This document shows positions 8,088 through 64,000 of a stretch of 64,000 nucleotides of DNA, piece after piece; within the stretch, counting starts at the first letter, position 1; every line of letters begins with the position of its first letter. The notes under the pieces are model-generated. The model searched no databases. It was not told where the DNA came from and saw only the letters and a program-made list of their open reading frames with translations. Made by a program: the position numbers and the translations under genes. The DNA comes from Luidia sarsii (taxonomy: Eukaryota; Echinodermata; Asteroidea; Paxillosida; Luidiidae), in contig OX465108.1 in assembly GCA_949987565.1 (NCBI GenBank), forward strand, positions 701,656 to 765,655, in the 5' to 3' direction.

Positions 8088-8201
8088 GTAAGCAACGCAA
8101 ATGTTACTTTGTTAGATTGGATATGTTAACCCTTGAAGTTGAACTGTTGTGTTCACGTCAACCCTATTTACCCGAACGCTTTTTTCTTCGAATTTCCCCT
8201 T

Positions 8202-8843: not shown

Positions 8844-9056
8844 CCAAAAGTACAGTACTAATACTAGTAATACAGGTTTTTAGTCTTTTATTTTCCATAA
8901 AAAACTGACTGTTTAATAAGCTGAATTTTAATATGGTGTGTTGACACCATCATTTCTAAAGAGGTTATATCTTCACATTTCTCTTTGCAGCAGTAAGTGT
9001 GGTGCGTGAAATAGACACTCCTGACTGAAGATACTAAGTGAGAAGGATACCGTAGA

Positions 9057-28500: not shown

Positions 28501-31500
28501 CGTCTGTATCCACGGCAACGTCGCTGCCAGCAGCTTGTCTGGTCAGGAGGGTTCCAGGCGGGAGAGTGATGCTGGGACCAACTCTGACCTGAAAGATTTG
28601 GGAGCAAAGGGCCGAGGGGCAGTCCTGTTAAATGAGGAAGACTGAATTGCACACACCTCTCAAGAATCTCAAGAATTCAAAGGGCTTGACCTTTTCAGCC
28701 AGGAACTTTTTCAAAGGTAGAAAACTTTCAACAACTTTAGGTCCTACTACTACTACTAGGATTGAAACCACAGGCCCTCGATTTATTGGGGAGAGCAAGA
28801 AATATGACACAATGGATTCCAAGACATAGGGGCACGGACTCATTCATGACAGAACCTTGCAGGGGACTATGGCTAGAGTTACGGCTTGGGCTATGGCTAG
28901 GGCTATGGCTAGGGCAATGGCTAGGGCTATTACTCACCCCAAAGGAGACAATGCAGCCAGGACTCAGCACCACCGAGTCCTTCAGCCAGACTTTGTCGCA
29001 GACGACGGCCAGACTTAACTTGCAGTTGGACTCTATCCTGACATCGTCCCAAATGTAGGTGTTCTCTAATGTCACATTCTCACCTAGAACACACACAAAA
29101 CAAAACAAAATTCAGAGTAGAAAGGAAAGAAAAATTGGCTGGGATAATCTTAACAATTCATAAAAAACAGCCCAGAAAATCTGACTGATAAGGACTGAAC
29201 TAGGCCTTAGTGTTTGATATAGCAGCTCTCTACCACCTGAATTATCTAACCCGTCTAAGGGGGCCTTCCCAAAACCCCGAGTCCCTGCATCAACCTCTGA
29301 CTCCGGCTTCATCTTCTGTCTCACAAAGGATTTAGTTTGGCTGAAATGGAAGGCTTGTAGTCCTGGTCAGTACAGAGTATTTCCCTGGAACGGGGGTTAA
29401 AAGGTTGTTCTTGAATACCTGTGATCTCAAAAGTTTAAGGTCCTGCTAGGATCGAAACGTCAGGCCCTCTAATTTTAGAAGTTTATGTATTGTAGGTCAT
29501 TTTAGTCAGTGAGTAAAAATTATATAAGGCTTCATTTCATACAAGGGTAGAGGAGGAATAGGAGAGATTGTTGGAAGAGCTCAGTCCACCCATGACTCAC
29601 CTATTGTGCAATTTTTGCCGATGACTGACTGAGAAATAACCGTGTTTGTGCCGATAGTAGTCCCCTGACCAACTATAACGTCTTCCTGCAAATCGCTACC
29701 CCTGAGAAGGAGGATGACAACAATCAAGATGAAAGAGTGTCTTGATCAACCTTGTACTCAAATATTCACAAGCTTCAGCATCCTGGATAAACATATTCTT
29801 AACTCTGCAATTAATTTTAGTACCCACCTTTACTAAAGAGAAAGAATTTGAAGAGAAGTTGACATCCAGCCCTCTCAAAATAATTTGAAAATTCAAAAGA
29901 AGTTGCCACCTTGGCAAAGACATGTTAGGAATTTGGGAAGATGCTATCTAACGGCTGGATAGCTCATAAGAGCACTGGTACGCAATACCAGATGTATCAG
30001 GTTCAAGTCCCGGATCAGTTAAAGTTTTCTGCTATTTTTCAAAATTTTACAATTACAAAATGATTGGAGAATTGCGGCAAGAGGGTCCTGGAGAGGAGAC
30101 TAACTTGCTGGTACTGACCTCTCCAGTGTGACATTACTGGCAAGGTAGACATTGTGCCTGCCCAGCTTGTAGCCTTCCCCCTCAGCCGCTAAACTGTCTG
30201 GCACCAGGGGATGGGACCACCTCCTTATGACGTCCTTGCTGCATGAGAGAAGCACAGAGAGTACAGCAGCTTTAGGCAGGCTTGAGGCAAGACTACAGAA
30301 TGCCAATCTGGCGCCCTCTACCAGAAAGGGAGACTTCCAGATCATAATTATGTTGTGGTGGATGGAAGCAATGGGCACCAAAATAACCAACCATTGGTGA
30401 ACTGTAACTTCAATGAATTGTAAATTGAATGTGACACCATTCATTTGATTACAGGAAGATTTTAATAATACAATGGACACGACATTGACCAAGACTACAA
30501 TACAAAACAGAGTGCTCAATTCTCTGGACCAAATTGAACCTGGTGAAAGAAAAGACTTGAATATCGCCGGGAGACTGGGTGATGAGAGTTCAGAAATCGG
30601 TGCAAGATTATGTTGGGATGTAAAGCAGAGTATCTTACCTCACAGAATCGTACATCTGTAGGTCTGTTACCCTGGCTGCATAATCTTCCTCTATCACATC
30701 CATGTAAAGTTTGTTGCCTTCAATCTATCAAGAAGGCGAAAAGAATTCTCAAATCAGGTATGGTTGGAGCGTCAGATTTGTGGGATATCAAATAGGAGGT
30801 AGCAATGAATAGGTGGTAGTGACATCCCATACAATATCCTTTTCAGGACATTTTTGTCATTTTAGTAAACAATTATCAAAATGTTATCATGACTATGTGA
30901 GTGCTAATTTTTGGTTTGTTTCTCCGCTGGCCAACACGTGCCTGGCCTGACATCAGTGCAAGGATCTGGTACCTTACCTCCTCATTGACTAAGACTCCTC
31001 GGATGAGATCAGACAGGTCCTGGTAGTCAAAGTTGTCCACAAAGAGCTCGGTGACTCGAGGAGAGCAGACGCTGATGTGGCTGTGCATCAAGTCGTAACG
31101 GACGCTTAGAGCACTGTGCTCCTCAAACAAATTCTGAAAGAAGAAATGCTGTCAATAAGTACTCCTGATCATACTTGTGGTGTGTATTGTGGCAAGGTGT
31201 GGTTCGGTCGCTGTCGGGCTTATAAGTGATTGTAGCTGTGCTCAGGAGTGTTTCTTCATTAGTTAATGATGTCACCTTCAATCAAGGCAAATAAAACCTT
31301 GTCTGGACCGGGACTTGAACCCGAGACCTCTGGATTAACGTACCAGTGCTCTTCCACCTGAGCTATCCAGCCCTTAGATGGTGGCCTTCCCTAATAGTCA
31401 ACTAGTCTTTGCCGGGGTGGGGGCGCCAGTCAGAAGCAACTCAATCATTAACTGCCGTTTTCAATAATTATGATTTTAAAAAAAAAAGACCATTCCTACC

Positions 31501-34306
31501 ATTATTAAAAAATCACTGGAAAAATAAAATAAAAAAGGAAAGATCTAGAAATATTCTCATTTCACTCATTCATTAAATCACTTATTTTCAGATTGCCATA
31601 GAGGGAATTACATAGCTACAGTAGATGGTACTCAGAGGTGAAGAGAATTATCAATAAACGGAATATTATAGCAATGAGGAAGAGACTGAAATGGGTTAAA
31701 TGAAGGGCGTGGCAGCCAATGCATTACCAGGGGCAACCGGGCCTTGGTCTTCCCGTGCATCTTCTGGTAGCTCAGGATGCGCTTGGTGGTATCCGTGGCA
31801 ACCACCACCTCGTCCTCGGCGCTCCGCGTCCGGTGACCGGGGAAGGCGTGCTTGAAGACCATGGTGAGGACGGCCGACTTGTCTGCCTTGAAACGAGCCC
31901 TGATGACAAAGTGGAATCAACTGCTGTCAGCAACAGAGAGGGCAGGATTCAACAAATCCAGGACTAACTTTTCCTTTCACTTCACTTGCTCAGCTTGCTT
32001 TATTTCTTACAATTTTTGGGAGTTTAAATTGAAAAATTACGTACCAGTGCTCTTCCATCTGAGCTATCCAGCCCTTAGATGGCGGCCTTCCCAAATACTC
32101 AACTAATTAATGGTTGAATTGCTTCTGACTGTCACCCCCACCCTGGCAAAGAAGTTTGTTTCACTTCAGAAATCAAATTGAAAAAAATGGGAAAGAAAAC
32201 TTTGACAGGAATGGGACTTGAACCCGAGACCTCTGGATTAATGTACCAGTGCTCTTCCATCTGAGCTATCCAGCCCGTAGATGGTGGCCTTCCAAAACAG
32301 TCAACTAGTCTTTGCCAGGGTATAGACTCAGACTCAGACCTATGCAAACCTTCGCAAAGGAGATTCATGGTAAATGGTGTCACAGCAACCATGTTCATAA
32401 CCTGTAAATTTCTCAATAAATAACCTAAAATCACAGGACGAGCCCTGTCTAATTGTTTTCCCTCTACCCAGCATTTTATTTTTTGGAGGAAGAAGATTTT
32501 GGGGGAGTGACAAGGAGGAAGTGCTGGGGTTGTAATGATACTCACTTGTGCTCTTCCATCAGAGCTTTCAGGGGCATGTTGGAGACCACATCACCACTGA
32601 CGAGGACAAAGTGGGCTCTGATCATGGACTTGCGCTCAATCTCTCTCAGCGCATCGCCGACGGAGTGACATCCCTCCGAGATGATGGGCGTGATGGTGCA
32701 GTGGGAGGTCTCTTTGTTCCACTTGGATTGCCTGCAAGAGTCGGGTCAATCCTTGCATCAATGCCTCGGCTATAGATCAACTTCACGCCAGTCTTTGAAA
32801 ACCCAGACGGGCATTTTCATAGTACGATGTGCTGAGCCCACAGGGCTTATGACACGTTGAGTAGTTCAAACTCTCATTCATCTGCTTTCTCGCTTTTTCT
32901 CACCGATGCAAAATCATATAACATGTATGATAACCGATGCTATACAGACCCAAATCCACCCTACAGCCTTGATCAATTAAGTGGTCTGGTGGGGAAGAAT
33001 GGTCCTGCTAGGATCGAAACATTGGGCCCTCTAACTTTTGAGAGAAAACCCAGGGGAAACCATGACCTACCGTATATGTTTCTTGAGCTGGTCGGCGTGT
33101 GAACAACAGAACACGAAGATCTCTTGCATGCCGGCACCAGCCAGGAACTCAAAAGTGTAATCAATGAGAGGGAAGTTGACCAGTGGTATCAAGGCCTGTA
33201 AGAAGGAGAAGACAGGAATGTAGATCGATGGACATTGTAATAATGACCAAAGCAACCACGAGTCACCCTTAAAAGACCATGAAATTATCATGCAACTAGC
33301 ATTTTGTGACAGAGCAATGCCTTGGCCAATGGACTAGCACCCCCACCCCGGCAAAGACTAGTTGACTATTTGGTAAGGCCGCCATCTAAGGGCTGGATAG
33401 CTCAGATGGCAGAGCACTGGTACGTTAGTCCAGAGGTCTCGGGAACAAGTCCTGGTCCAGTCAAAGTTATCTTTGCCAGTTAAAAAATAAATAAAAAAAA
33501 TAAGACTTTTATTTTTAAGAAACTACGACATTCAGATGATCATAGAAGACGGATTGCAGCGATACAACACAATTGAAAGTGCAACACTTATTACTGGCTT
33601 AAAATAACCCAAATATGTAAATTTCAAAGATACTTATGGAAAATAAAGGGCTTTTATTTTTAGTTTGAGAAAGGACCTGCTCTGATCCAAAGCACAGACT
33701 GACTGGAATTTGTGCTTAGAGTTAGAATAAAAAGTGTACAACTTCTCCTTCCTGGATGAAAGTTCATTAGAGGGCATGGTATTGGGATTCTAGAAGGACC
33801 TTTCACTGTTTTTGAGAATAAGGAACAAGGTCAAATTGAACTTGAAGCTACCAAGTACCATGGAGGAAGGAAGCTACATTACTAGGCCCTAGTTACAAAC
33901 CCAAAACTTTCAGTTTCAATATGGAAGATAACCAAGTTAAAAAACACCCTTAAAATTGTATTATTTTGTTGTCAAATCAATTATAAACAAACGAAGATTA
34001 TATAACACTGAATATTTCAGCTGTGAGGAGTTTTCAGACCATATTTTGGATGCAAAAATCAGAGTGAAACTGACCCATACTATTATTAGTAGGGCGCCCT
34101 CCTGCGGTCTGTTTTGACCGTGGACCTATTCTGAAACACATGTTCAACATCTGACCCTTTCGATGAGTCAATAAGTAACTTGCCCTCGGTCTTTCAGCTA
34201 CTATTGGAGCAAATCGCACGTTGAAGCTGTCGGCTAGTACAACCGCTTGGAAGATGTCCTCCTGCTGTATCACACTGTCGCCTTTTTTACTCTTTTTGGC
34301 CGCCAT
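25504..34306 (-). CDS. EIF2B5: Translation initiation factor eIF2B subunit epsilon (15 exons, 674 aa)
   Basis: This is the catalytic subunit of eIF2B, the cytosolic factor that exchanges GDP for GTP on eIF2. Exons from 5' to 3' are 34306-34184, 33195-33071, 32731-32546, 31899-31728, 31133-30978, 30724-30639, 30238-30119, 29701-29601, 29083-28938, 28588-28414, 27950-27843, 27392-27178, 26919-26839, 25948-25781 and 25566-25504. They sum to 2025 nt with all phases matching. The nucleotidyltransferase-like domain starts at QAVVLADSF (20-28) and includes [12 protein letters not shown] and [13 protein letters not shown]. Left-handed beta-helix hexapeptides span about 300-405. An acidic linker spans about 445-500. 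The W2/HEAT domain (about 505-674) holds [14 protein letters not shown] and LPLFRNYIK, and ends in the acidic [12 protein letters not shown]. Human eIF2B epsilon is 721 aa. The first intron uses a GC donor. Introns carry several tRNA-headed SINE-like copies and an 18-bp minisatellite. Confidence 0.97.
25997..26825. repeat. 18-bp minisatellite in EIF2B5 intron 13
   Basis: About 46 tandem units have the consensus GGGCACTGGGTGGAGCAT. A second unit type ends GAAGTACG or GAGAAGTACG and is interspersed. Because the period is a multiple of three with no stop words, several frames stay open on both strands for 130-327 residues. The flanking splice sites (donor at 26838, acceptor AG at 25950-25949) join exons 13 and 14 cleanly, so the array is intronic. 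Confidence 0.95.
27480..27745. repeat. Purine-rich GA/GGGA tract in EIF2B5 intron 11
   Basis: The plus strand is almost all G and A, with GAGAGAGA and GGGGGA runs. Overlapping open frames here (Arg/Glu/Gly on plus, Ser/Pro/Leu on minus) reflect composition only. Confidence 0.85.
28096..28375. mobile_element. Two tRNA-headed SINE-like fragments, opposite orientation
   Basis: 28096-28170 is a minus-strand copy: the plus strand reads GGACTTGAACCCGAGACC, the inverse of the B box. 28287-28375 is a plus-strand 5' fragment with CACCCCCCCACC, AAAGATAGTTTACTAATTTG and a decayed head. Both lie in EIF2B5 intron 10. Confidence 0.75.
29912..30060 (+). mobile_element. tRNA-headed SINE-like copy in EIF2B5 intron 7
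   Basis: It has the flank CCTTGGCAAAGAC, A box TAGCTCATAAGAGC, anticodon-like stem CTGGTACGCAATACCAG, B box GGTTCAAGTCC, then AAAGTTTTCTGC. It is diverged relative to the copy at 9478. Confidence 0.8.
31280..31440 (-). mobile_element. tRNA-headed SINE-like copy in EIF2B5 intron 4
   Basis: The minus strand reads GGCTGGATAGCTCAGGTGG, AGAGCACTGGTACG, then GGTCTCGGGTTCAAGTCC. The conserved 5' flank (TAGTTGACTATT) and the C-rich CGCCCCCACC word are present. Confidence 0.85.
32036..32325 (-). mobile_element. Two adjacent tRNA-headed SINE-like copies in EIF2B5 intron 3
   Basis: A copy truncated within the tRNA-like head (about 32036-32150) lies beside a fuller copy (about 32175-32325) in the same orientation. 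Both keep GGGCTGGATAGCTCAGATGG on the minus strand. The second has the B box in GGTCTCGGGTTCAAGTCC. Confidence 0.85.
33325..33490 (+). mobile_element. tRNA-headed SINE-like copy in EIF2B5 intron 1
   Basis: It reads CACCCCCACCCCGGCAAAGA, CTAGTTGACTATTTGG, GGGCTGGATAGCTCAGATGG, AGAGCACTGGTACG, and a B box mutated to GGGAACAAGTCC. It ends in TTATCTTTGCC followed by an A-rich tract. Confidence 0.85.
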
Positions 34307-41446: not shown

Positions 41447-43721
41447 ATGGCGACGACTGTGAAGCAAGATATGCCGCCGAAAGGCGGCTATCCTCCCTTC
41501 GATTACAAGCGAGCCCTTCCCAAACGGGGCATGTCCGGTAAGGAAAATGAAGAACAATTGCCCAGGGTGCTGCAAGATTTAATTTGGTGAAGTTTCTATG
41601 GGATTTGTCATGTGAAATTAGGTAACAAGTATTGAAGTTAGTCGGAGACTAACTCGTTTGAGCTCTGATGACCTGTGACTGAGTTGTGTTGCATTGTTTT
41701 CGTGATAAAAAATCATTAATTTTCTTCATTCCCATACCCATAGAGGAATTCCTTCATGCCTTAATTAAGTAGGAAGAAGAGACTGCATATTTTTAAAACA
41801 AAGAAAATCGCGTCAATTTGAATTAATAATAAGAACAGTGTTATTTAGAATAAATTCAAGTCTTCGTACTTCGTAGTTTTAACGCAGTGGCTGTTGTTAC
41901 GGCAGTCGTCCGTGTGGTTCCCTGACTTCACAGTATTTTTCAGGATGTTTAGCTCTTGGAACCAGACTATCAGCTTATAGACTGGTTCAACCAGCCTGCA
42001 ATGCTGACGAAATACAATCTAGTCAGGGAACCACACGGACGACTGCCGTAACAACAGCCACTGCATAGTTCTAAACTACACTACACTACAGACACTGAGA
42101 CAGTACAGTTTTGAGTTTTGTAGTAACTTTAGTCCCAGACTGAGGACTTTGCGAATGCGAGATTTTAGAAGGTTGGTGAAAGGCAAAAAAAGTTTAACAA
42201 ACTGATGTTTTTTGTACGCTCTGACTCTGAGTCTGAGTATTTTTGTGCCCAACTGCTGCCATTACTCATCCGTGTCCAATGTCTTATTGTCTTTCCACCT
42301 TGCATAATGAAGCACACTGATTTTGGTTTTACCTCCACAGGTTACATGATGTTTGCTGCCTGTGCTGCTGTTATGAACGTTGGCTTGTTCACCTATGGTA
42401 GGCACAACAGGAAACGAAGGTAAGGAATGGGCAGCATAGTTTAGATGTCATTCATACGTCAATAACCCACAGACTACAAACTCCTTCCTAGCAGTAGCAG
42501 CGGCAATATTTGGGGAAAAACCCCAGAAAATAAGATAGGAGTTATTACCAAATGGAGGCTTGGGTTTCAAGTACCAATGATTATCTTTTGCTTACAAAGC
42601 GGAAACCATGTTATTCTTTGCTAAGTATACTGATTCGTCATTCATCTTTATGTATACTGATTCGTCATTCATCTTTATGTATACTGATTTGTCATTCATC
42701 TTTATGTATACTGATTCATCATTCATCTTTATGTATACTGATTTGTCATTCATCTTTATGTATACTGATTCATCATTCATCTTTATGTATACTGATTCGT
42801 CATTCATCTTTATGTATACTGATTCGTCATTTGTCCGTGATAGGTTGTGGGCTAGGGAAGAGCAGGAATGTTTTATTGGCATCACGCCTCTTCTGAGAGC
42901 CGAAGATGACAGAAGGTGAGTCGTCATTTCCTTCTAGAAATACTCGTTCCGCTGTCCAGGCATCGGAATGCGTCTGTTTTATCTTTTGCTGCAATTCTAT
43001 TTTCTAACTGGCCATTTTTCAGTGGCAGGGAAAGGTCCTCAAATGTCCACCTGTCTTTATGTTAATTGTGGTCTTTATAAATCAACTAACAGTTTGCAAC
43101 GTGTAACAAAAACAAGATGGCCTTTATTGGCCTGGCAGATTGATCCCAGCTGGATCATTCTTGAAGGCAGAAACTACAGCATTGGTGTCACAAAGGATTC
43201 CTCTATACATCATGTTATGTTCGTGGTTATACATTATTCAAATCCACCACAAGGCAGGAGTCGTGGGTTCAAATCCCGCCCGAGCTGCCTGATTTTTTTT
43301 CATCAGGCATTTGGCAAAGCACTGGGCATTCAGTGCTTATTACGTCGAGAAGGGCAAACCCTCGTTTGCTTATATTCTCCTTCATGCAAACATGTTTTAT
43401 CTATGATGCAACGTGGTACCCGCCACCATAGTACATTATTCAAATCGACCCAAACCCTAACAAAACTTTCTCAAAACAGCAAGATATCCTTTATGGAACC
43501 ATGAGACCCGCCTCTGTCTCCCTCTCTGCAGCACTCTGAAGATTCTGAAGACTAACGTTGAGGAGGAAGCCAAGATCATGAAGGATGTCCCCGGCTGGAC
43601 TGTTGGTGAGAAAATCTACGATTCCAAGCGCTGGATGGACCCCATGCTCCTGGATCTCTACTACCTCCATCCCAGGAAGGTCCGTGAGAAGGAGATGTTT
43701 GGCTTCGCCACCAATGTATAA
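41447..43721 (+). CDS. NDUFA13: NADH dehydrogenase 1 alpha subunit 13 / GRIM-19 (4 exons, 143 aa)
   Basis: This is an accessory subunit of mitochondrial respiratory complex I in the inner membrane, also known as GRIM-19. Exons are 41447-41537, 42341-42419, 42844-42915 and 43532-43721, giving 432 nt in phase. The N-terminus [20 protein letters not shown] and LPKRGMSG match the family. A single transmembrane helix lies at about 32-50 ([18 protein letters not shown]), followed by a basic RHNRKRR. The matrix or intermembrane part has LLRAEDDRR and [13 protein letters not shown], then [11 protein letters not shown]. At 143 residues it is about the usual length. The start codon lies in CAAGATGGCGACG, a YY1-like context. 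Intron 2 holds a 27-bp minisatellite running almost to the exon 3 acceptor. Intron 3 holds a SINE. Confidence 0.96.
41883..42065. mobile_element. 183-bp MULE-like MITE, copy 2
   Basis: It has the same length and termini as the copy at 35241-35423 (CGCAGTGGCTGTTGTTACGG and its inverse). The flanks TAGTTTTAA and TAGTTCTAA fit a 9-bp target duplication with one change. It lies in NDUFA13 intron 1. Confidence 0.85.
42626..42836. repeat. 27-bp minisatellite in NDUFA13 intron 2
   Basis: About 7.8 units of TATACTGATTCGTCATTCAT plus CTTTATG recur every 27 bases (42627, 42654, 42681 and on to about 42816). The array ends 7 bases before the exon 3 acceptor at 42842-42843. The frame through the units (MYTDSSFIF repeated) is continuous with the frame of exon 3. 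Confidence 0.95.
43240..43400 (+). mobile_element. SINE with B box and the 96-bp-array body, NDUFA13 intron 3
   Basis: GTGGGTTCAAATCCCGCC is a good B box. It is followed by a T run, then GGCATTTGGCAAAGCACTG, GGCATTCAGTGCTTATTACG and GGGCAAACCCTCGTT. This single dispersed copy has the same order as the array at 17560-18530 and appears to show the parent element. Confidence 0.8.
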
Positions 43722-48300: not shown

Positions 48301-49075
48301 GTAAACCAACGTTTCGGACAGGGTGTGCTCTGCCCGTCCTAAAGAGACTGCTGAACGATTGTGCTTATGTGTTCCGGAGATGCCGATGCATGCAGAGGCC
48401 TCTCAAGCTATGCTTAGTTACCGGCTATTTCCAAAGAGATGCCTTAATGGTGTCACCGCAAACTTTCTTCTTTGCGATTCCATCATGAAAACCCCAAAGT
48501 CTTATCTTGGCGTGTGTCTTACCATCATGCATGCATGGTGCTTTCTCCACCTTCACCACGCGAGTGTCATGTCCGAGGAAGTTGCCACGGTAGTCGGATA
48601 CAGGCATGCGTTCCTTCTCTACGTCTCCCTGCGGCACGAAGCTCTTCATGGCGTCACCTACGGGCAGGCTCCTGCTGAGCGGCTTGGGCCCGTAGTGACC
48701 GGCGTGCGTGGTGCGGAACGACTCCACACGCTCGTCCGAGTCCATCCTGAAGTTGGTGCGGTTCAGCTTACGGCACATGGCAACGCGAGGGAGGATGCGA
48801 CCCGTGAAGGCGGTGCTGGATTCCGTACTCGTCTGGCTCCCGCCTTTGGGATCCTTATGCATGACGTCGGCGGGGGCCGGGGGGTCCGAGGCCGGGGCCC
48901 GACCGTAGTGGTCATGGGCGCCGTAGTCCTTGGCAAAGGTGCTCCGCCTGAGGGCGCTGCGGGACAGGCGACGGTCGTTGGCGATGCGGAAGTGTGAGGA
49001 GGAGAGGAAGTCCTTGCCCGTCAGCTGGGCGGGCACGGTGGGGATGGCCGGCAGGGTGACGGCTTCAGAAGGCAT
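45331..49075 (-). CDS. Probable axonemal / microtubule-associated protein, TEX45-like (7 exons, 486 aa)
   Basis: Exons from 5' to 3' are 49075-48523, 48047-47938, 47533-47308, 47133-47015, 46503-46299, 45922-45831 and 45486-45331. They sum to 1461 nt with matching phases. The protein has no signal peptide, membrane helix or enzyme motif. It is rich in Ser, Thr, Tyr and His. Short loosely repeated phrases recur through its length: FLSSSHFRI, RTTHAGHYGP, THTQFATSTDEQFPG, TRLGNTNYKAGHDKKY, TTNYTFYHK, YSTTQTDAYPAF, GTTHLTSYTAKR. Spaced repeats of this kind are typical of proteins that line ciliary doublet microtubules. Length and the HVPVDRVAGHEKIKSKV segment recall TEX45 (C19orf45) and related SAXO-type proteins. 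The family name is from memory of pattern and is uncertain; the gene model is solid. It converges on NDUFA13. Confidence 0.85.
45567..45735. mobile_element. Complete foldback repeat copy
   Basis: The arms GGGCCTGACGTTTCGATCCT and its inverse flank a short CAGAGAAAG-type loop. The right side continues to GCAACATTTTTGTATATC. It lies in the last intron of the TEX45-like gene. Arms or hairpins also occur at 46190-46245, 46735-46830 and 47180-47275. Confidence 0.9.
46590..46700 (-). mobile_element. SINE body fragment in the TEX45-like gene
   Basis: The plus strand reads CAATGAGGGTTTGCCCTGG, GACGTGATAAACACTGAA, then GAGTGCTTTGCCCGATGCC. This is the inverse of the body repeated at 17560-18530. Confidence 0.7.
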
Positions 49076-51640
49076 CTTGACCTTGGTGGCGTTATAACCT
49101 GACCTGACAGTCTATGAACCGTAGAGGGCGGCCTTCTTGGTCTTTTTCAGTTTGAATATAACTTTAAGGCTGAGGAGTTTACTTCATCCTGTTAGAGAAT
49201 CAAAGAAAACAAGGTTCACTTTTTGCCTATTTCAAAAGAATAATAATTTCTATTTCTAGTTAGATGATATCGTAATTACACAAACTGATGCAGTTATTGT
49301 TCCACACTGTGAAAATGTTGGTCAAGTAAACGTTGGGATGTAATAATATCGTTGCTAAACATTTCAGTCTCGGGGCTGATAAGAGGGCCTGATGTTTCAA
49401 ATTCTACCAGGATTTTTCTCAATGCCATGCAGAAAGGTCCTGCTAGGATCGAAACGTCAGCTTTGTGCATTTGTTAGAAGTGGATATCTTTCGGTCATTA
49501 TCAGTGAGAAGTTTGAAACATTGTTTAAGACTTTAAAATTGAATTATCAAAACTGAGGATGGCCTGGACGTTTCGATCTTACAGCAGGACCGCTCTGAAA
49601 GGCAGAACAAACCGCATGCCCCCTGATAAAGGATTTTTCGTTTTGGTTATTTAAGTAGCTTAGAACCTTTCTGCATAATTATTACTCTACAAGCCTATAG
49701 GTCGTTGTTTTGGGTTGATTGCCATCATGGTTGTAGAGTACGGTACTTTATGTTACACTACCAACCAATGACTGCGAAAAATGCACAGATTCATGTCTTG
49801 TTGACAAGGGACTTGAGGCCATCCTGGCAACCCTGACATCACACGAACGGCCACCACGATTTCTAACTCCGCCAGTTCGGGATGTTTTTTATTGTCCTCA
49901 AATCTGAACTTTGGCAAATGAGGTACGGACAATGATGTCACCACTCCAGGTCTGCGGCGGGTTGATTAGGTCAATGGCCCGGTATCAAACACTTCACGTT
50001 AGCCTGGCAACGCTTGTGCATCCCTGCAGACCAACTTTCAAACCACTCTAATATTTCTGTTCACAAAATATTCAGTAGTAGGAACAAGTGTAACCAAACA
50101 ACGCTGAATAGCATCACTTAAGTCAAACAGATTAATTTCAACGCAAAGTTATGCAGAAATGTTACAAACTGCTGATTGACGTATATACCAAATAAAATTA
50201 CCTCAATTCTCATTGACCTAATGCTTCGATCCTTTGAAGACTTTTCTCAAAGGCAAAATGCCAAGGGAAGAAACAAGGGGAAAGGTATAACACGTTATGG
50301 ATGACCAAAAGATACGTGGATAAAGAAGGGAACTGGTAGCCATACCCGGGTTAGATAGTAGGGAAATGCAAGGAGGGAGTAACTGCATGTATAGATTAGA
50401 TTTCTGTAGAACATAATGAGGACGTATAGGTTGATCACCTAACCATACTGTCATCAGACTGGGAGTCTAGCCCGTCCTTCAGCTCACATTTCATGATTTA
50501 TTCAAACCTTTCTTCACAGCTTTCTCAAATAACGCAATGGTTCAGACCAAGAAAGCGTTCCGCTTTTAACAACTCCACTAATACCGATCAGATTTCAAAG
50601 AGAGAAATCTAAAACTTTCCCCATCGAGTGTAAACTTGGACTCGGATATTATATTACTTTCGTTTCACTTCTGGCAATAATAACCTTACTTGGTGTGTTT
50701 TTTTAAGATAAAAATGTTCCAGTTTAGCTGTGACGGTGGAAAAGATGAAAATGTTCAAGCATTTCTGATAAAATAAAACCCAGGGATGGGCAAAAGGTTG
50801 GCCAACGCTTCTTCAGTACCCCAGCCCAGAATAGAAATCCACACCGTGTTTTGTCAGTGTGTCGCATAATACCCCCTCCTTAGATTCATGGGTTTACATA
50901 AGAGGGATCGCTATCGTTTGCACACCCTTAGGGAAGGACATGCAACAGTTACACGGGGCTAATCGGCTCACTGGCCAGGCGTCTCTCAGCAGAGCAAACA
51001 CGGTGCTTTGTCGACCGTTAGATCGATGCGTTTGTCGCTGTGCATCTCCTAACGACACGCTGTTGCCTCAGTCCTAGTCACCCAGCTGCTATGTAAACCC
51101 AAGAGAGTAATCTAATTTGGAGCGCCAGACCCATGCACTCACTGCAGACTGCATGGTTTTCATCAAGGACTATAAGGGAGGTATCCTTGGTTATTAATAA
51201 ATCGTCCAGTTTATCGCTGCTGAATCTCAGAGGGAAGAGACAGGTTGAAGGCAACCTGTTTTCCATTCTATACCCTCGGTGACAGATTAATCACTTATAG
51301 CTTGTTGGATTGCAGGTGTTTTGTTGGTGCGATAACGGAAACCCTTGTACTACATGTACTGATGCCAATACGGCCCTATCGCGGTTGTTCCTATACGTTT
51401 TAAGAATAAATGCACACAGAACACATGTTTCTGATAAAGAGGACTTTGCATTCCTGTGTCGGGAGTCTTCTAGAAATATAATGTTGGACTGATAACAAAA
51501 TTATAAATCGTGAACTGAAACCCCGAGTTCTGCTTATGAGATTGAGGTAATTTAAAATTCAATTCAGTGTGAAACCGATGGAGTAAACATCATCTGAAAT
51601 ATCAAAAGGAGCATTGTCAAAGCACCTAATAAACTGGTAA
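49076..51640. other. Intergenic, upstream of the TEX45-like gene
   Basis: No supported coding exon was found. Decayed foldback hairpins occur at about 49385-49470 and 49560-49605, with an arm at about 50215-50250. The rest has only random short frames. It may hold the promoter and leader exons of the TEX45-like gene. Confidence 0.5.
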
Positions 51641-51799: not shown

Positions 51800-53487
51800 T
51801 CAAAATGGTAATCACCTCACAAATCTAAACCCATTTTGCTCAGATGTCGATGTGTTTTAATGATTGTATAATGGCTGAATTCCCATTCCCGATCTTAATG
51901 TGATTCAATAAATTATATATTACTGATGATAATCATCCTCATACAAATCATAAAGAGAGAGAGAGAGAGAGCTGCTTTAAGTTAGGGGGCCAGGGGGATT
52001 TCACAAGGCTAATGCCATTTTACAGACAGGTCCCATGGTAGGATTGAAACACAAGGCACCCCTACAACTGTTGTCTTGGGACAACACATTCCAGTAACCA
52101 AGTAAACCCTCGTGAAATCATCTTGACACAGCAGTAGAAATGAGCCCCATCGAATGAATCAGACACTGATAAAATTATCATTCAGTGGTCTGAATGTCTT
52201 CAGAAATTGACGTTTGATCCCTGTACAGTCCAATTCGGCTCCGACATCTTGGGTGGAAAACAAACCGACCACTCGTGTCTATACGGGATGCTTGTGGATA
52301 AATAATTATGGTTTTCACCTCTGGAAATTCATCACTGAGTGTATTATAGGGTGGTGCGACCAGAACATGGAGAAATACAATCAGTGAACACGTTGGGTAA
52401 CGGAGATAGTGTTGGGCGAAATCGCTAACACAGTGATCACATCAGAAAATGGTTGTGGTTCACAGTGTTGCTATCTTACCAACACAACCCGACAGCTGGC
52501 CGGAGTTTTGACTCTGTCACCACAAACCAGTTGATAATTAGAACACTGGTCAAATTGTTGGTATTTTTTTACAGTGAAGATATGGATTCTGAACACTCTA
52601 CAGGGTGTTTGTGCCAACCAAACCAGATCTAACGGAAGTAAATTTTACAGCCCAACGTGTGACCTTGACCACTTTCCACTTTCCCAAAATATGTCAGTAG
52701 CTACGGAGACGACTCAATGTAAACACGACAGAAATCGAACTAAAATACAAGATTTTATCAATCTTACCTTCGGACAGCCTAGTCACAATCACCAATCAGC
52801 CCCCAGCGATGTTACTGACAAGAGTGATGCGATCAGAGCTTTCGATTCACCAGAATAATCATGATTTTTGCTCATAAGTCTGCAAGTTATAACATCGGTG
52901 GATACATTCAGTGGGTACCCACACACACTGTGGTTTTCTGGTTGGGTCGGGGTGTTGCTGGCCCGTGCTGCACTCTATGGGTGCCCCCAAGTTGCGTTGC
53001 CATGGGGACTGCGCTCCCCGCGTGTGACGGGACAATAACGCTCGTCAATGCGTGAGGGCGCTTTGATCAATGGCCAATAAAAAAAACATTGAAAGCTGAC
53101 GTCACAAAGGGGTAAGCCCGCTATGATGTTAGTACACGCTGTCTGATGGCAAGTTAGGGAACGATAATTATGAGCCTGACGTTTCGATCCTAGCAGGAAC
53201 TTCCCCACTGAGACAAAGTATTTTACAGAATCGTCAGGATGATTATCAACGGCGGTGTCACAATACTTAGATCGACGTAATAACGCCCCCACCTCTGCTT
53301 CCAAGGAATAACATCAAACCAAATATCCGATGATTCAATTTTAATATAATTTTCGGGGAATTGTTTTTTCAATCATTATTTTTTTAGAATCTCTCGAATG
53401 TAACATAACTTTTTTAACGTGTGGCTCGCATTGCGCCCTCACTCGGGAGGTTTTGTCCATTATTTTGGTTTGCGCGGTGCTTCAAAC
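51800..53487. other. Intergenic and PMF1 upstream region
   Basis: A short (GA)n run lies at 51954-51971. A 94-codon open frame at 52574-52858 has no splice context or family resemblance. A foldback half-arm is at about 53172-53200. CpG density rises toward 53480, as expected for a housekeeping promoter of PMF1. Confidence 0.45.
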
Positions 53488-55846
53488 ATGGCGACCACTC
53501 CAGACGGAATCTTAGAGGCGACTGAAACGTCGGTTATTGAGACGTCTAAGGATGAATCTGGTGAAAAAGAGGCCAAGAAGGAAACAGCAGTGACGGCCTC
53601 CGCCAGTGACGAAGGCTCTCATATGATCCGCCTTCGTGATGCTCTCCAAAAAACTGTCAAAAAATGTCTGGAAGCAGGGAGGTAGGCGATTTGATATTGC
53701 ACTGAATGAATAACCGATTGATTAATTGTATTTGTATTTGTAATAAAATAATTATTACAACTTCCGACTTGTTACAATACAACTGATATACACATACCCT
53801 TTGCACACTTAAGTTAACAACAATTTGCATGGAGAAAAATCACCATTCCTTTTTCCACAATCGTGCATAAACCTCCATGCATAATAAAGTAACATGTATG
53901 GCGTTGTCATATTATTTTTAGTTTTAATTTAAATTTTAATTTTAATCTAATTTTTGAATACTCCATTATTACTAACTAACTAAGGGAATACTGTAATTAT
54001 CCAAAGTTCTGCCCGACATTTATTCATAAGTTTTAATTCAAATAACTCCCAGCTTGTGAAAGTCATCAACAAAAACTTGAAACCTGTACAAAGTTGTAGC
54101 TGATTTTAAATGGTCTCTCTCAATATGTAGTGCATGAATCACGGCCTTGCCCACCTTCCTTCATTGACTTTCAGTTTGTCTTGAATTCCTTCTTGTCATC
54201 ACAGATACAGCAGTTTTGCTCGCAGTTATCACTTTGCCCACGAGAAGCGACCTCAAGCATTGCGCAGCATCAGGGAACAGTTCCTGGAAAATCTGGAGCT
54301 GTCCATCCAGGTTAGCAACTCACTGTTCCTGGAATTTAGTCAGCAATGAGAAAAGTCAGTCTTAGAATGTTTGAAGCCCGCCGCACACGAGAGCTATCTG
54401 CCGAGCTAAAAATCTCTGGAGGCCATTCATTACCTCAGCACGTAGCTCACCGTGTACGGTCAACTTTTGGTTAGATTTCTACTCTTGAGGCAGTGAAACC
54501 AATATCTATGTACCGCTAGTTAATTGTCCAGTTGCATAACCTGTAACTTTTCTAAAGTGTTCGCCTTTACATCTGATTAATTAACTGTGTTTTTTCAAAG
54601 TGTTCTCTTATTTGCTTTCTGTCGACAGCAAGAGCTTGATTTGATGATAAAGGAAGAGGGTCTGGTGAAACTCTTCAATGATCTGGACCAATTGATCCTG
54701 GACGCACCCACGCAATTGAGCCAACCGGCGTGGTAAGATTCAATGGCTTCTCACGGCTTTGGTTTTGGTTGACCTGCATCTGTTTGGAACCAGGCACATT
54801 GAAATATCAGGGGTGGATTTTACTAAGCCATGAGATTCATAGTATCTCAGCGTACAATGGATTTCCCATCATGTTATGACAGGCTGTATCGATCATACTC
54901 GTAGTCTTGAAATTGATCAAAACTTACAATGAGTTTGCTGAAAATTACTACAGGGTTTTGGATCATTTCTGGTTTAAAATAACACAAAAATGTTTCCAAC
55001 TGCGTACTGATTTATAGGACAGAAATGTGACCCAGTACGGTATGAGGATTCTCGTCCAAATTTGAGTTAAAATTTGAGACCTAATTTGCTTTCCAATGAT
55101 ATCAAAATAATTTCCATACGTTGCTGAACTCCAAAGTTACAACGTGAGAGATACGAGGCAACGCAAAATCATGGATACCACTTTTTGAGAAGAAAGGCTC
55201 TACAGTTTGAGGTGTTTTCTGGTCTTTTCTGGTAGGCGTCCGTCTGGGGACCCCGCTGAAGATTCTCGCAGTCACCTGGTCCAGCCCAAGCTGAGAGAGA
55301 AGGAGAGGCTGGGTCACCTCCTTGAGCAGGTGGAGCAGGAGAATCGACGACTCCACCAAGCCCTGCTGCCCCGTAAACACCATCTCCTAGACACCAAACA
55401 CAAGATTAATGAGAGGCTCAAGGAATTTGATAAGGTAAAAGAAAACACACTTGTATGCAATAATGGTGCAAACTGCTTGGAGTAAAATGACCAAAATGCT
55501 TATCTCAAAATTTAGCACGTTTCTCACTTTTCATTTCATAAGTTTTGAAGTTGAATGCTTGCAGTGACACCATTGTAAGAATAAATATAAAATACCTACT
55601 CCAGATGAGACTATTTTACAAAGTTTGAGAAACAAAACTTAAGGCATTTTTTTTTCAATTAAGCTATCTGCATTCAATGGTTAAATGCTTAGTTTTCTCA
55701 TTTTAAAGGAAAGGAAATGATATTTGGTATTTTGATAAATGAATCATTTGTGGCTATCGTTTTGTTTGTAGGCTGCTGCAGCCTGCCGCAAAGTCCCTAC
55801 TGATGAAATGGAGGAGATGAGCACGGTCCTGTCTAGCGCCACCTAG
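53488..55846 (+). CDS. PMF1: Polyamine-modulated factor 1 / Nnf1, MIS12 complex subunit (5 exons, 225 aa)
   Basis: PMF1 (Nnf1) is one of four subunits of the kinetochore MIS12 complex, which links inner centromere proteins to NDC80. Exons are 53488-53681, 54205-54310, 54629-54732, 55236-55434 and 55772-55846, totalling 678 nt in phase. The N-terminal 40 residues are Glu/Lys/Thr-rich and disordered. Then come LRDALQKTVKKCLEAGRYSSF (53-70 region) and FAHEKRPQALRSIREQFLENL. Helices around KEEGLVKLFNDLDQLI follow, then the hallmark QPAWRPSGDP across the exon 3/4 junction (about 132-141). A coiled coil spans about 150-200 (EKERLGHLLEQVEQENRRL). Human PMF1 is 205 aa with the same order of elements. 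The start lies in ACATGGCGACC, again YY1-like. Confidence 0.93.
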
Positions 55847-57329: not shown

Positions 57330-57570
57330 TTACTTTCTATACCCCTGTAAATAATTATGTAAATACACAAATGTAATTTTAAGGCTTTCTTTAAATCCAT
57401 GGTCTGTATATGTTTTAATAAATCAATTTGACTGCCAACAGTTGTATAATTTGTGGTGTAATTATTGGAGTAAACCAGTGTGAGTCTTAGAGCCTTTTAA
57501 ACCCTGATCAAAAGGTGTTTGGAAAAACTGTGTTCCAAGCAGTTGTCTGTTTTATCAGAAATCTCGGAGA
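57330..57570. repeat. Duplicated segment, copy 1
   Basis: The stretch from TTAAGGCTTTCTTTAAATCC to CTGTTTTATCAGAA matches 59695-59900 with few changes. It contains an AATAAA and no gene. It may be the 3' UTR of PMF1 or of the neighbouring minus-strand gene. Confidence 0.85.
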
Positions 57571-58223: not shown

Positions 58224-61200
58224 CTATTGTCCAAAGAACGGGTTGACCTGATGGTAGTGGCATCCCCCATGCATTGGTTCGTAGTCCATACCCTGGCTGC
58301 TGAATCCCTGCACACCAGCCAGAAGGCAGGAAACGTACGTGTTTGGAAGGCAGCCAATGCACCTGCAGTTGAGAGACAAGTGTTGAAGACAGGTTGGTAT
58401 AACACTTAACACACCATCTACACGATGCAGCCATCCTTTGAGATTCTGACTGTGAGAAAAGTCCTGCTAGCATCGAAACGTCACAACCTGTAGTAAATGT
58501 GTCTTTGAAAACCAACGCCTTTTCCTGAACCATGCATCTTCTCTGTCATCCAAAAGCTGAAACTAAAGGGTGGGGTTCGTTGTAGAGGATGAAGATTGGG
58601 AGGTCTTTTCAAAACGGAGTGTGATCTTCCACATCAAAGTCAAAGGCCTGAAGTTTCCAACCTTGTACTGTGAAAATGGAAGTTTTTGGAGACAAACCAT
58701 GAGGGGGATCCTAAGCCCAAATGCTAGGATTCACCATAGCGTGGAGCACTTGTGTAAAATAATTTATTCATCATCCGTAAAAATCAGTTTTAGTCAAGTC
58801 GTTTTGTTCAGATGTCTTTCTAAATATTTAACGTTCCCATGGGAGTGTCCTGTCGGTCACAACCAGGAATTGGCAATTTGAGTTAGAGTTACACTGGGTG
58901 ATGAATTTCACACATTTACACAGTCAACGATAAACAACCCAACAAATTATTAGTTATGGCCGACAAAAGACATCCTGGTTCACCTACCTGCAGTAGTCAT
59001 CTTTCCCATCCCCGTCCACATCCCTCATGTACCACGTGTTCATGTGGCCCGCGTCGAACCATCCCCCAGTGCTGTTGAAGTTGAACTCACTGGTACCCGT
59101 CATGCCAGCCAGGGCGCACGACAGGAAATAGTCGCCGGTCGAATTGATAACCACCCTGCGAGAAGAGGGAATTAATTCCTCCATCGTCAGTTTTCCCACG
59201 TCTTAAACAAGGTACCAGACTCAATTTATCTTGAGTCATGTTCAAAAACCCAGCAGGCATCGCTTCCAGGTCTGCCTAAAAAAAAAATTGATTCTTTGTT
59301 GAAGAAGTTTGGAAGTCTATTTTCAAAACGGAGTGTTATCTTAAAACCTGAAGCCAAAGACTTTCCGTTTCCACGTCTTGTTCTTACAAATGGTTGGAAG
59401 AACAGACCAAACCGGAGCCTGGGCTTAAGAAAGGATTCGGAAAAAGACCCCACACAGTTTTCTACAAACTCGACCATAGAAGGAACTTTCTCTAATGCCG
59501 AATCTGGGTGGATTGCAGCATGGTGCAGAGTGTTGGCATCCTACCTGCAGTAGTCATTGGCTGCACCCTGTCCCTGCACGTCCGCCCAGCCACGGAACAA
59601 GGAGGGGTCACCGAGGTCAACTACGTCATAGCGACGTGCTCTCACCATTCCCTGCTGCATGTTGTCCGTCGCTGTGTCTTCAATGGTATCTTATGTAAAT
59701 ACATAACAAAAATTAAGGCTTTCTTCAAATCCATGGTCTGTATATGTTTTAATAAATCAATTTGACTGCCAACAGTTGTATACATTGTGGTGTAACTATT
59801 GGGGTCAACCAGTGTGAGTCTTAGAGCCTTTTAAACCCTGATCAAAAGGTGTTTGGAAAAACTGTTCCAAGCAGTTGATTGTCTGTTTTATCAGAATCTG
59901 AGCAATCATTTTGGCGGGAAAGCACGATGGAAGTGCATTGGTATAGCATGTGCATCATGGAAATATGGATTCGTCCGAATTCGGATGAAGTGGTTTCATT
60001 TTACGCACGAGCCTAGAGGAGTCACTGGTCGGCTGCTGTCATAGACTTGCGTGTAAACTGAAGTCGTGGCCAAACATTTCGGCACCGTCTGTCTAGTGGT
60101 AATGTGGAACATAACGAACCAGATTAAGACTTTCAGAAAAAGGGAAAAAATGGCGGGGAAGAGAATTAATAATCAAGGAAAACCTGTTAGGTCAAATGTA
60201 ATGCTTTGCTTCCATGACTTTATATCACATTTACAAATGCCGATTTCAAAAGAGAACTGAGTCAACATGCTTCCAAATGTATATGTACAATAATATAGGC
60301 CTACCCCCAGCGAAGCACATGCCGCTATCTTTGCCGGGGAGCAGATTACAAGAGAATGATTCGGGCCAGTCCAAACCAAAGCTCTGCAGTACGTCATCAC
60401 ATCCGTCCCTTGCCAATTGGCAAAGCTCTCTACAAGGTGGATACGGTATCGATGTAGATCCATCACATCTGGTGGGTAAAAGAGTCAGTCATTCAATCAA
60501 TTAATAATCTTAAGTGTGTCATAAGAAAGGCAGTGAATTTATTGCTGTCTACAATGACCAAGAAGACGAAAAAAGAAATGACCAACAAAAACCAACCCCC
60601 CCCCCAAAAAAAATAAAAAATAAATAAATAATAATAATTGGTAAGCAGTTATCGACAGATTTATAATTATGTTTGGTTCTTGAAAATAAAAACCAACTAT
60701 AGCGTTTCAATCCTGGGAAAGATCTTTCCTTCAAAGACAAGATAAAGCAGTTGATGAGTTTCTGGGCTTAATAAGAGCCCTTCTGGACTAAACACTGGTT
60801 CCTACGAATAACTCAAGTGATACTGGAACCATCTAAGGGTTTGATGGCTCAGGTGATAGAGCGCTGGTACATTACGTTACTTACACATTGCATATTTTTA
60901 ACCAGTTAGTTTACCCTGGTCCTTTTTAAAAGAACAATTGAACGTACTTTGGTAAAAACAGGGAACAGATGAAGCTTGTGTAGTGGGGCGAACAGCCGCT
61001 CACAAGTGGGTGGAACGCTTGGAGCTGTGATTCTGTTTCGGCTTGGGTGGAGTGACCCATCGGGTTCGGGAAGGACGTGTAGTTGTAGCCAAGACTCGAT
61101 TGGCACATTGGCACGGTAATCATTTCACATGTGTCCTCACCTCCCGTGCTTCCCTCCGATGATAGACCTGTCGCCATGGCACGAACATAATACATGGAGA

Positions 61201-63966
61201 CGTATTATGGTATCTGATTGATAACAGCAGCTTCAGATAGCACTTAAAGGCCCAATACAACATTGGGAAGATAGGGAAACATCAACGTCCACAGATTTCC
61301 TTCTAATTTACACACAGTTTGTAGATGGTCATGATAGAATCCTCATGTTAACATCTCATGGTCAGGGTTGCTGTACTTTTCGAGAAATCTTCACTCAAAC
61401 ATAGATAAATAGTTTATTACTCGCGAATAAAAAAAATATTTTTTACACTAGTTACAGAACGGTTTTTTGCCTTTTTCTACTTCCTCAGATAACCATTTGA
61501 GCTAAAACCTTCGCAGGATTTCGTTTTTGGAATGTTAATTGTTTAATACACAAACTGTGGCAATCTTTTGACCTTTACCAATGTTGTTTAGGGCCTTAAA
61601 AGACTAAGCAGTTAGGAAGCATGAATAAGCGTTTGTAGCAACAACTGCCGGTACTTCATCAGATGCAACAACTTCTTCTTTCGATGTTATGGTGCGTACG
61701 AGCCATTGGGGAATCACATTTGAATGGGAATTAAAGCTCACTGGCTTTCATTTTCAAGAGAGGACAGAAACTCATGGATTCGGGGTGCGTGATCATTTCA
61801 GTTGAAGGTATTTCAGGCGATTATGACCACTGACGTCTTCAACAGAAATGACATTTTGAAATGAGGAAAATAATGGGGGAGGAGGAGGATGGTGAGGAAG
61901 AGGACAATCTAAAGGAGGATGGGGAGAACGAAAAGGGTATCAATGATACTACTACAGAAATTCTCTCTTAGGTTCTTGTCAGTTTTCCAAAGCCGAGTGT
62001 AGAAAATGACGCCGCAAGCACACTAATCCACCCGCCTGTTCTGTTTAAATTGACATACCGCCCATAAAGCACCTGCCCTCATGTTGTCTGGGGAGGTTTT
62101 CACAGGAAAGTGAATCCGGCCAGGGGAGGCCGTAATCGATCATGAGGCCCTCACAGCCTTCTCTAGCAGCTTGACAAAGCTCTCGACAAGGTAGCAGCGG
62201 CTGTGAGGGCGCCTCCTCTTCACATCTGTAGGAATCAATCATGACATATTTTTATAATTAGTTAATTAAATTAAGATTAAGACAGCCTGGCGATTCGACC
62301 CCTCATCTGGTTTGATTAGAAATGTCGGGAGGGTGTGATTGGCTCTGACCAATGCAATTCGATATTCCACAGTAGGTTTGATCAATGATGTAGCAGCTTG
62401 TACTTTGATCAACGATCAACGTTGAACAATATTTGTTTTGATATACAAAAATGTTGCAAACTGCCTACTGACTAAAATTACCAAAATGCAAATCTTAAAA
62501 TTTAGTGGGCCTGACGTTCCGATCCTAGCAGGACCTTTGTTTTGTTAAAAAACAATTTGTTTTGTTAAATACTGCCCAACATTCACTGAATTAAAGACTT
62601 GACTAAAGAGGTTCACATGGTACACGTACTTGGGAACGTGAAGTGCACACAGGAAGCTTTTCAGGTGTGGCGAGCACTGAATTTCGACCAAGGGCCACCA
62701 GAACTGATGTATCTCCAGGTCGACCTCTTCTTGACTGTTGTGTCCAACATTGTTAGGCATCGATGTCTGGTTGTAGTCGATGTCTTGGCACAAAGGTATG
62801 GTAATACCTTGACACTGCCTGATAGGCCTAATGTCTGGATTACACGGACAAGACGAAATCAAACAATGTACACAAAAAGATACTTTGGATAGATAATTAT
62901 GCGGGCGTGTGTATGGGAGCCAGAAATAAAGAAAACTTCATAGCGAAGGCAATTTCAGATCTTCCGTTGAATCTTCCCCAAAAGCCATCTGAGCTATCCT
63001 GCCCCAAGATGGTAGCCTTGCCTAATAGTCAACAAGTCTTAGCAGGGGTGGGGCGCCAGTCAGAAGCAATTCAACAATGTATGATGTGGTTTACATACGA
63101 ATTAATACCAGGTATTATGTAGGAAAAAAACCCTACCTTGTTTGTATTCGGGAACGGTGAAGCGCAAGGGTGGTCCCTCGCCGTAGTCATTCAGTCCAGT
63201 AACCTGGAAGATATAGCTACTTGGGCTCATCAAACCTGAGACGACGAATGATTTGTAGATGCTGTCTCCTTCCATCGGTTCGAGGGAGTGAACAAGAGTA
63301 GTCATGGTCGAGGTCTCGTTGTAACGGATCCTGAAGGAGTGTACGCCCAACACGGGGTCAGGGCGGGTGTACAAGATGGCGACCTGGCTCGCGCTCAGAC
63401 GGGTGGAGTTGATGATCCACGGGACATCTTGAGGAGGGAGTCTCGCCATTTCTTCGGAGTGAAAGAAAACGAGAAGAGGGAGATGTTTCAGATCATAATC
63501 CGACTGTGGTGCTGATGGTTGTGGCGCAGGTGGCGGCTGTGGTGTTGAGGACGAAGATGGAGATGGCGAGGATGATTGGGAAGGTGATGAAGTGGAGGAT
63601 GGGGACGGAGGTGATGGTTAGGATGAAGATAGGGAGAGAAAACACAATGAGGAGGACGGCGAGGAAGATGAAGAGGCTGGGGAGGATTTAGAATGATAAT
63701 TAAACTACATAACATGCTTTCCGAAGCCGATTTCGCACTAGGGTTAATGACGCTGAAAGCACAACAGTCCACCTGCCTGTTCCGTTTTAATTGACATACC
63801 TCCCATAAAGCACCTGCCATCATTTTGTCTGGGGAGGTTTTCACAGGAAAGTGAATTCGGCCAGGAGAAGCCGAACTCCATCATGAGGTCCTCACAGCCT
63901 TCTCTAGCAGCTTCACAAAGCTCTCGACAAGGTAGCAGCGACTGTGAGGGCGCCCCCTCTTCACAT
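58224..63966 (-). CDS. Secreted mosaic protein: Frizzled CRDs, FN3 and VCBS-like repeats (3' part, 9 exons, 562 aa)
   Basis: Exons from 5' to 3' are 63966-63800, 63451-63137, 62834-62630, 62225-62059, 61167-60948, 60468-60305, 59689-59545, 59155-58988 and 58362-58224. They total 1690 nt with every junction in phase, ending in TAG. The 5' end is beyond the window. Domain order is: second half of a Frizzled cysteine-rich domain, one fibronectin III domain, two complete Frizzled CRDs each with ten cysteines, then three short repeats. CRD marks are [31 protein letters not shown] and [13 protein letters not shown]3 marks are [16 protein letters not shown] and [16 protein letters not shown]. The C-terminal repeats contain [16 protein letters not shown], a calcium-binding VCBS/FG-GAP-like loop, and YFLSCALAG. 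No transmembrane helix is seen. CRDs bind Wnt-type lipids or act as protein contacts, so an extracellular role is likely but the function is unknown. Confidence 0.92.
59695..59900. repeat. Duplicated segment, copy 2
   Basis: It matches 57330-57570 (GGTCTGTATATGTTTTAATA, TTTGACTGCCAACAGTTGTA, ACCCTGATCAAAAGGTGTTT). It begins at the acceptor side of the exon at 59689-59545, so the intronic flank of that exon is part of the duplicated unit. Confidence 0.85.
60826..60880 (+). mobile_element. Truncated tRNA-headed SINE-like copy
   Basis: ATCTAAGGGTTTGATGGCTC, then AGGTGATAGAGCGCTGGTAC, keeps the A-box half of the cloverleaf only. Confidence 0.6.
61855..62045. repeat. GA-rich tract and upstream part of a tandem duplication
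   Basis: A GGAGGAGGAGGATGG-type tract is followed by GCCGAGTGTAGAAAATGACG, then the exon at 62059. The same order (GATGG-rich tract, GCCGATTTCGC, exon) is found at 63500-63800. Confidence 0.75.
62439..62539. mobile_element. Foldback repeat, left arm only
   Basis: It begins GATATACAAAAATGTTGC, continues through CTAAAATTACCAAAATGC to GTGGGCCTGACGTTCCGATC, and stops after AGCAGGACCTTTG. It shows the outer part of the arm in full. It is in an intron of the mosaic gene. Confidence 0.85.
62985..63075 (-). mobile_element. Truncated tRNA-headed SINE-like 5' part
   Basis: The plus strand reads CTGAGCTATCCTGCCCCAAG, ATGGTAGCCTTGCCTAATAG, then GGGGTGGGGCGCCAGTCAGA, the inverse of the A-box half and the C-rich 5' flank. 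Confidence 0.7.
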
Positions 63967-64000
63967 CTGTAGGAATCAATCATGACATAATTTTATAATT

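What the first reader, a model, noticed from the sequence alone, without database searches (positions are those of the whole stretch)
58224..63966. Unusual secreted Frizzled-CRD / FN3 / VCBS-like mosaic gene
Nine phase-matched exons give at least two complete ten-cysteine Frizzled CRDs, half of a third, an FN3 domain, and a C-terminal set of short repeats with a DVDGDGKDDYCR loop. There is no seven-helix or kinase part, so it is not a Frizzled receptor, ROR or sFRP of usual build. I know of no standard vertebrate protein with this order. It could be a lineage-specific Wnt-binding or matrix protein.
Basis: partly seen in the sequence, partly recalled or inferred. Interest (0 to 1): 0.75.

Follow-up and report, generated by a model that had tools for sequence, protein, structure and literature searches.

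The report
Sea-star secreted multi-Frizzled-domain Wnt-modulator gene
This is part of a sea-star gene for a probably secreted protein with several Wnt-binding (Frizzled-type) domains and an unnamed C-terminal module; it belongs to a little-studied echinoderm family in which one sea-urchin member is reported to restrain Wnt signalling in the embryo.

Summary
Nine minus-strand exons (63966 to 58224, phases consistent) join into 562 aa: half of one Frizzled CRD, an FN3 domain, two complete CRDs and a C-terminal 131-aa module ending at a stop. The 5' end lies beyond the window. The order FN3-CRD-CRD-module also occurs in uncharacterized Patiria proteins (LOC119745889-891), and a module tree places the window with Patiria and Acanthaster, so it is a sea star. 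The closest studied relative is sea-urchin sFRP-1, reported to antagonise Frizzled5/8-JNK signalling; its cloning primer matches the start of P0013, which has the same FN3 and module. The window gene lacks the Ig domain of sFRP-1, so I call it an Ig-less sister, not an ortholog. The module has no Pfam match of its own; it is two cysteine-bearing FG-GAP-type blades related to bacterial propellers, and ends CRD, Ig and other proteins in echinoderms, hemichordates, molluscs, an annelid and a priapulid. Most likely the protein is a secreted Wnt-binding modulator; the first complete CRD largely keeps the fatty-acid groove. There is no binding, expression or transcript evidence. New here: the shared module, and a duplicated CRD unit at the window's edge.

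The parts
63800..63966 (-). E1: second half of a Frizzled CRD; first half beyond the window
   Evidence: Phase 2/1, AG/GT; near-copy of E4
63137..63451 (-). E2: FN3 domain
   Evidence: Phase 1/1; Pfam fn3 E 6.4e-5, 23.5 bits, under the cut-off of 25; iterated profile finds FN3 of relatives incl. sea-urchin P0013 303-391
62630..62834 (-). E3: first half of complete CRD A
   Evidence: Phase 1/2; Pfam Fz, PDB matches Fz8/Fz7
62059..62225 (-). E4: second half of CRD A
   Evidence: Phase 2/1; 52% identity of CRD A to FZD7
60948..61167 (-). E5: first half of complete CRD B
   Evidence: Phase 1/2; PDB matches Fz10/Fz5/Fz4
60305..60468 (-). E6: second half of CRD B
   Evidence: Phase 2/1
59545..59689 (-). 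E7: linker and first blade (GWADVQGQGAANDYC) of the C-terminal module; alternative acceptor at 59677
   Evidence: Phase 1/2; module HMM
58988..59155 (-). E8: rest of blade 1 and start of blade 2 with the loop DVDGDGKDDYC
   Evidence: Phase 2/2; module HMM
58224..58362 (-). E9: end of blade 2, C-terminus and stop codon (58226-58224)
   Evidence: Phase 2 in; whole module 70-73% identical to the five Patiria proteins P0001, P0006-P0009
63746..64000 (-). Upstream copy of a likely tandem duplication (E1 plus intron flanks), 91.4% to 62005-62259, offset 1741 bases, cut by the window end
   Evidence: blastn; alignment

Best explanation
A sea-star gene of the echinoderm family that includes sea-urchin sFRP-1: a secreted, multi-CRD protein that binds lipid-modified Wnts (or Frizzled CRDs) outside the cell and so limits or shapes Frizzled signalling. 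Shown here: exon structure, family, CRD and FN3 folds in a Patiria relative's model, groove residues, module homology. Inferred: secretion (the signal peptide would be upstream of the window), Wnt binding, antagonism. The FN3 and the linked CRDs would act as a multivalent arm; the C-terminal two-blade FG-GAP-type module, with one likely Ca2+ loop and disulfides, would tether or oligomerise the protein in the matrix, the step least supported.
Against: No binding, expression or transcript data. CRD A has one extra Trp (HQFWWPL) inside the lipid contact stretch, which could disturb the groove. CRD B is less conserved. The Ig domain of sFRP-1 is missing, so its tested function may not carry over. 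The architecture is not uniform among the sea-star relatives: the FN3 profile does not list P0002 and P0005 lacks the module. Some CRDs lack the lipid groove (ROR2, passages of PMC11219042). In the 71-CRD tree 36 of 68 inner branches are open. The P0007 model is poor outside CRDs and FN3 (mean pLDDT 61; module under 50).
Confidence: 0.62

Rival explanations
1. An extracellular-matrix or innate-recognition protein in which the CRDs serve other lipids or partners, and the C-terminal module is the business end (lectin-like or matrix-binding), with Wnt a side issue.
Confidence: 0.25
2. E1 and E2-E9 belong to different transcripts: E1 is part of an upstream copy and the FN3-first gene is separate.
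For: In Patiria P0007 and sea-urchin P0013 the CRD before FN3 is of a divergent lineage, whereas E1 is a canonical near-copy of E4. Patiria isoforms X3 and X4 (P0008, P0007) share one 3' part but differ 5'.
Against: E1 to E2 is in phase with AG/GT sites. A tandem duplication with offset 1741 explains a canonical CRD before FN3 within one gene. Saccoglossus P0173 also has a canonical CRD followed by FN3.
Confidence: 0.25
3. A decaying or chimeric copy that is not expressed.
For: Recent exon duplication; 12 of 13 exon differences between E1 and E4 lie in codons that change the residue (no significance test made); extra Trp in CRD A.
Against: All nine exons open with splice sites in place, two CRDs that align with FZD7 across their length, and the six cysteines conserved in 18 of 18 aligned modules.
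Confidence: 0.1

Closest known systems
Sea-urchin sFRP-1 (S. purpuratus, here P0013 / LOC115917869)
   Same: Several CRDs, FN3 after a CRD, same C-terminal module, no netrin domain
   Different: Has an Ig domain between CRD3 and CRD4; BLAST pieces against the window protein are 28-41% identical
Patiria miniata LOC119745889/890/891 (P0001, P0006-P0009), uncharacterized
   Same: FN3, then two (three in P0001) CRDs, then the module; 47-56% identity
   Different: The CRD before FN3 scores weakly there (60-66 bits) and is divergent; in the window it is canonical
Canonical sFRPs (sFRP1/2/5, sFRP3/4)
   Same: Secreted CRD protein, Wnt modulation expected
   Different: CRD plus a netrin domain (passages); here several CRDs, FN3 and an FG-GAP-like module
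Bacterial FG-GAP_3 (PF13517) proteins with DYCR repeats (L001, L002)
   Same: Same repeat unit: the module profile matches at 1.5e-34 and 3.6e-33 (E for the locus's own frames)
   Different: Several tandem repeats against two blades; no CRD seen in those frames

Membership tests
CRD plus DYCR-module family (echinoderm sFRP-1-related) | One or more ten-cysteine Frizzled CRDs | tested here: met
   Pfam Fz, three stretches; two complete CRDs
CRD plus DYCR-module family (echinoderm sFRP-1-related) | C-terminal module that ends the protein | tested here: met
   HMM i-E 3.2e-58, residues 431-561 of 562 (the profile was started from this sequence); independent relatives match the same module
CRD plus DYCR-module family (echinoderm sFRP-1-related) | Secreted: signal peptide | not testable with these tools
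   5' end beyond base 64000
Sea-urchin sFRP-1 (strict ortholog) | Ig domain between the last two CRDs | tested here: not met
   E4 joins E5 directly, no Ig match
Sea-urchin sFRP-1 (strict ortholog) | FN3 following a CRD | tested here: met
   Iterated profile, P0013 303-391 i-E 2.9e-23
Canonical sFRP | C-terminal netrin (NTR) domain | tested here: not met
   No NTR match; stop follows the module
Frizzled receptor | Seven-helix Frizzled region (PF01534) after the CRD | tested here: not met
   No match between the CRDs and the stop
ROR/MuSK | Kinase domain | tested here: not met
   No match in the 562 aa seen
FG-GAP/VCBS propeller | Direct match to a Pfam FG-GAP or VCBS model | tested here: not met
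   None for the window module, none among the seven families listed for 18 modules at E up to 1
FG-GAP/VCBS propeller | Homology to proteins that do match | tested here: met
   Module profile matches L001 and L002, which pass PF13517
FG-GAP/VCBS propeller | Closed ring of about seven blades in one chain | tested here: not met
   Two blade-like repeats only
FG-GAP/VCBS propeller | DxDxDG-type Ca2+ loop | tested here: inconclusive
   Blade 2 DVDGDGKDD fits by sequence; blade 1 DVQGQGAAND lacks acidic positions; binding not tested

The most novel reading that the evidence does not exclude
Frizzled CRD plus the two-blade DYCR module defines a third old bilaterian class of secreted Frizzled-related proteins beside the two netrin-bearing sFRP classes, kept in echinoderms, hemichordates, molluscs and annelids and lost or not found in vertebrates and arthropods; the module may complete a propeller by joining two or more chains, making a multivalent Wnt trap. 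This would move the origin of the sFRP-1 kind earlier than the echinoderm-only origin proposed in PMC5778778.
Probability: 0.35. Interest if true: 0.62.

Novelty: new member of a known kind. Interest (0 to 1): 0.42.

Why it matters
It links a set of uncharacterized multi-CRD genes to one with a reported role in embryonic Wnt control, shows that they share a C-terminal module with no Pfam match of its own, and suggests that this kind of secreted Wnt modulator may be older than thought.

Tried and rejected
Rejected: Frizzled receptor, ROR/MuSK and canonical sFRP (no 7TM, kinase or netrin match). Corin and the fish multi-CRD proteins were seen; the fish ones end differently and lack the module.

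Full report
Observation. The gene lies on the minus strand. Nine exons with AG acceptors, eight GT donors and agreeing phases give one 562-aa frame to a stop at 58226-58224. The window ends inside the gene: E1 is the second half of a CRD and everything before it is unseen. Pfam gives Fz three times (E 2.1e-71); fn3 is sub-threshold at 23.5 bits for exon E2 alone; the last 150 aa have only one weak match, DUF7057 at E 0.41, and NCBIfam none. Two limits: E7 may start at 59677 instead of 59689 (both phase 1), and the E1-E2 junction rests on phase only, since E1-E3 would fit as well.

What the gene belongs to. The protein search (144 proteins at E 0.001 or better among 4763 candidates, 120 listed) puts mostly sea-star proteins first: Patiria LOC119745889 (E 9.7e-206), Asterias amurensis, then Acanthaster LOC110989938 and 936 and Patiria LOC119745891, 889 (two more isoforms) and 890. 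The one outsider among the first nine rows, P0003 (Meganyctiphanes), is a multi-CRD protein without the module. Patiria P0007 reads: weak CRD 55-143, FN3 148-242, CRD 252-369, CRD 381-494, module 528-659. The sea-star set is not uniform: Acanthaster P0005 has no module, and the FN3 profile does not list Asterias P0002. The tree of modules places the window next to Acanthaster plus Patiria with Asterias outside (SH-like supports 0.96, and 0.98 for the whole group), so I take the window to be from a sea star. The plus-strand neighbour at about 53.4-55.5 kb is a PMF1/Nnf1 gene (joined pieces, E 9.1e-16), which bounds the gene on its 3' side.

Tested relative. Passages of PMC5778778 describe sea-urchin sFRP-1: four CRDs, an Ig domain between CRD3 and CRD4, no netrin domain; morpholinos remove anterior neuroectoderm markers and injected mRNA expands foxq2; it is placed as an antagonist of Frizzled5/8-JNK signalling. 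The paper says that the sea-star genome has at least four related genes and that hemichordates appear to lack one. Its forward primer encodes MEFPP; P0013 begins MEFPPQ. P0013 has four CRDs, a sub-threshold Ig (19.7 bits against 30), the FN3 (303-391, i-E 2.9e-23 after three profile rounds) and the C-terminal module (785-919). The passages I read name neither the FN3 nor the module. In the CRD tree, CRD2 of P0013, the first CRD of Patiria P0007 and of Asterias P0002, and CRD3 of a second sea-star type (P0136) form one group (SH-aLRT 93); in P0007 and P0013 this is the CRD before the FN3. The window gene has no Ig, and Pfam gave none in the Patiria proteins scanned (P0001, P0007), so I call it an Ig-less sister of sFRP-1.

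Duplication at the edge. 63746-64000 matches 62005-62259 at 91.4% with a constant offset of 1741: exon 154 of 167 identical, 5' intron 33 of 34, 3' intron 46 of 54. The match runs to the window end. The simplest reading is a tandem duplication of an FN3-plus-CRD unit, which would explain a canonical CRD before the FN3 and predicts copies of E3 and E2 just beyond 64000.

Novelty. The gene is a new member of a known, little-studied family. The points I did not find in the papers searched are the shared module and its FG-GAP origin, and that hemichordates (Saccoglossus P0173: CRD, FN3s, module; Ptychodera P0023 and Glandiceps P0127: CRD, Ig, module) and molluscs (P0024 and others: CRD, module) have CRD-plus-module proteins. 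Motif and gene-id searches returned no paper on this family. A single origin of CRD plus module is not shown. The annelid paper PMC4669655 (abstract and passages) reports CRD-only genes in Platynereis and one in Aplysia; whether the latter is the module-bearing P0034 I could not tell.

Noticed in passing
window 53404-55482 (+): PMF1/Nnf1 kinetochore gene in several exons; joined pieces match PF03980 at E 9.1e-16.
   Followed up: partly
window 9523-9596, 31300-31372, 32203-32275: tRNA-Tyr and two tRNA-Asn predictions, the last with anticodon att.
   Followed up: no
window 8200-8845, 14227-14575, 17672-18511, 26002-26826, 42625-42831: Long tandem arrays with periods 68, 10, 96, 36-90 and 27.
   Followed up: no
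window 62436-62541 and copies near 10848, 19887, 45637, 51703: A dispersed repeat of about 100 bases, 94-96% identical, in several places of the window; another of about 206 bases at 57355-57560 and 59691-59896 (91%), the latter ending next to the E7 acceptor.
   Followed up: no
window 48428-49111 (-): ORF with a sub-threshold SAXO5-like match (20.3 bits against 27).
   Followed up: no
P0139-P0151 (metagenome proteins): Thirteen proteins with the module near the N-terminus and a LamG domain (the four read also begin with a hydrophobic stretch); source organism unknown, no relative in viral contigs by two scans.
   Followed up: partly
P0011, P0012 (Fundulus, Anableps): Fish proteins with several CRDs and a different C-terminal part, no module; uncharacterized.
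   Followed up: no
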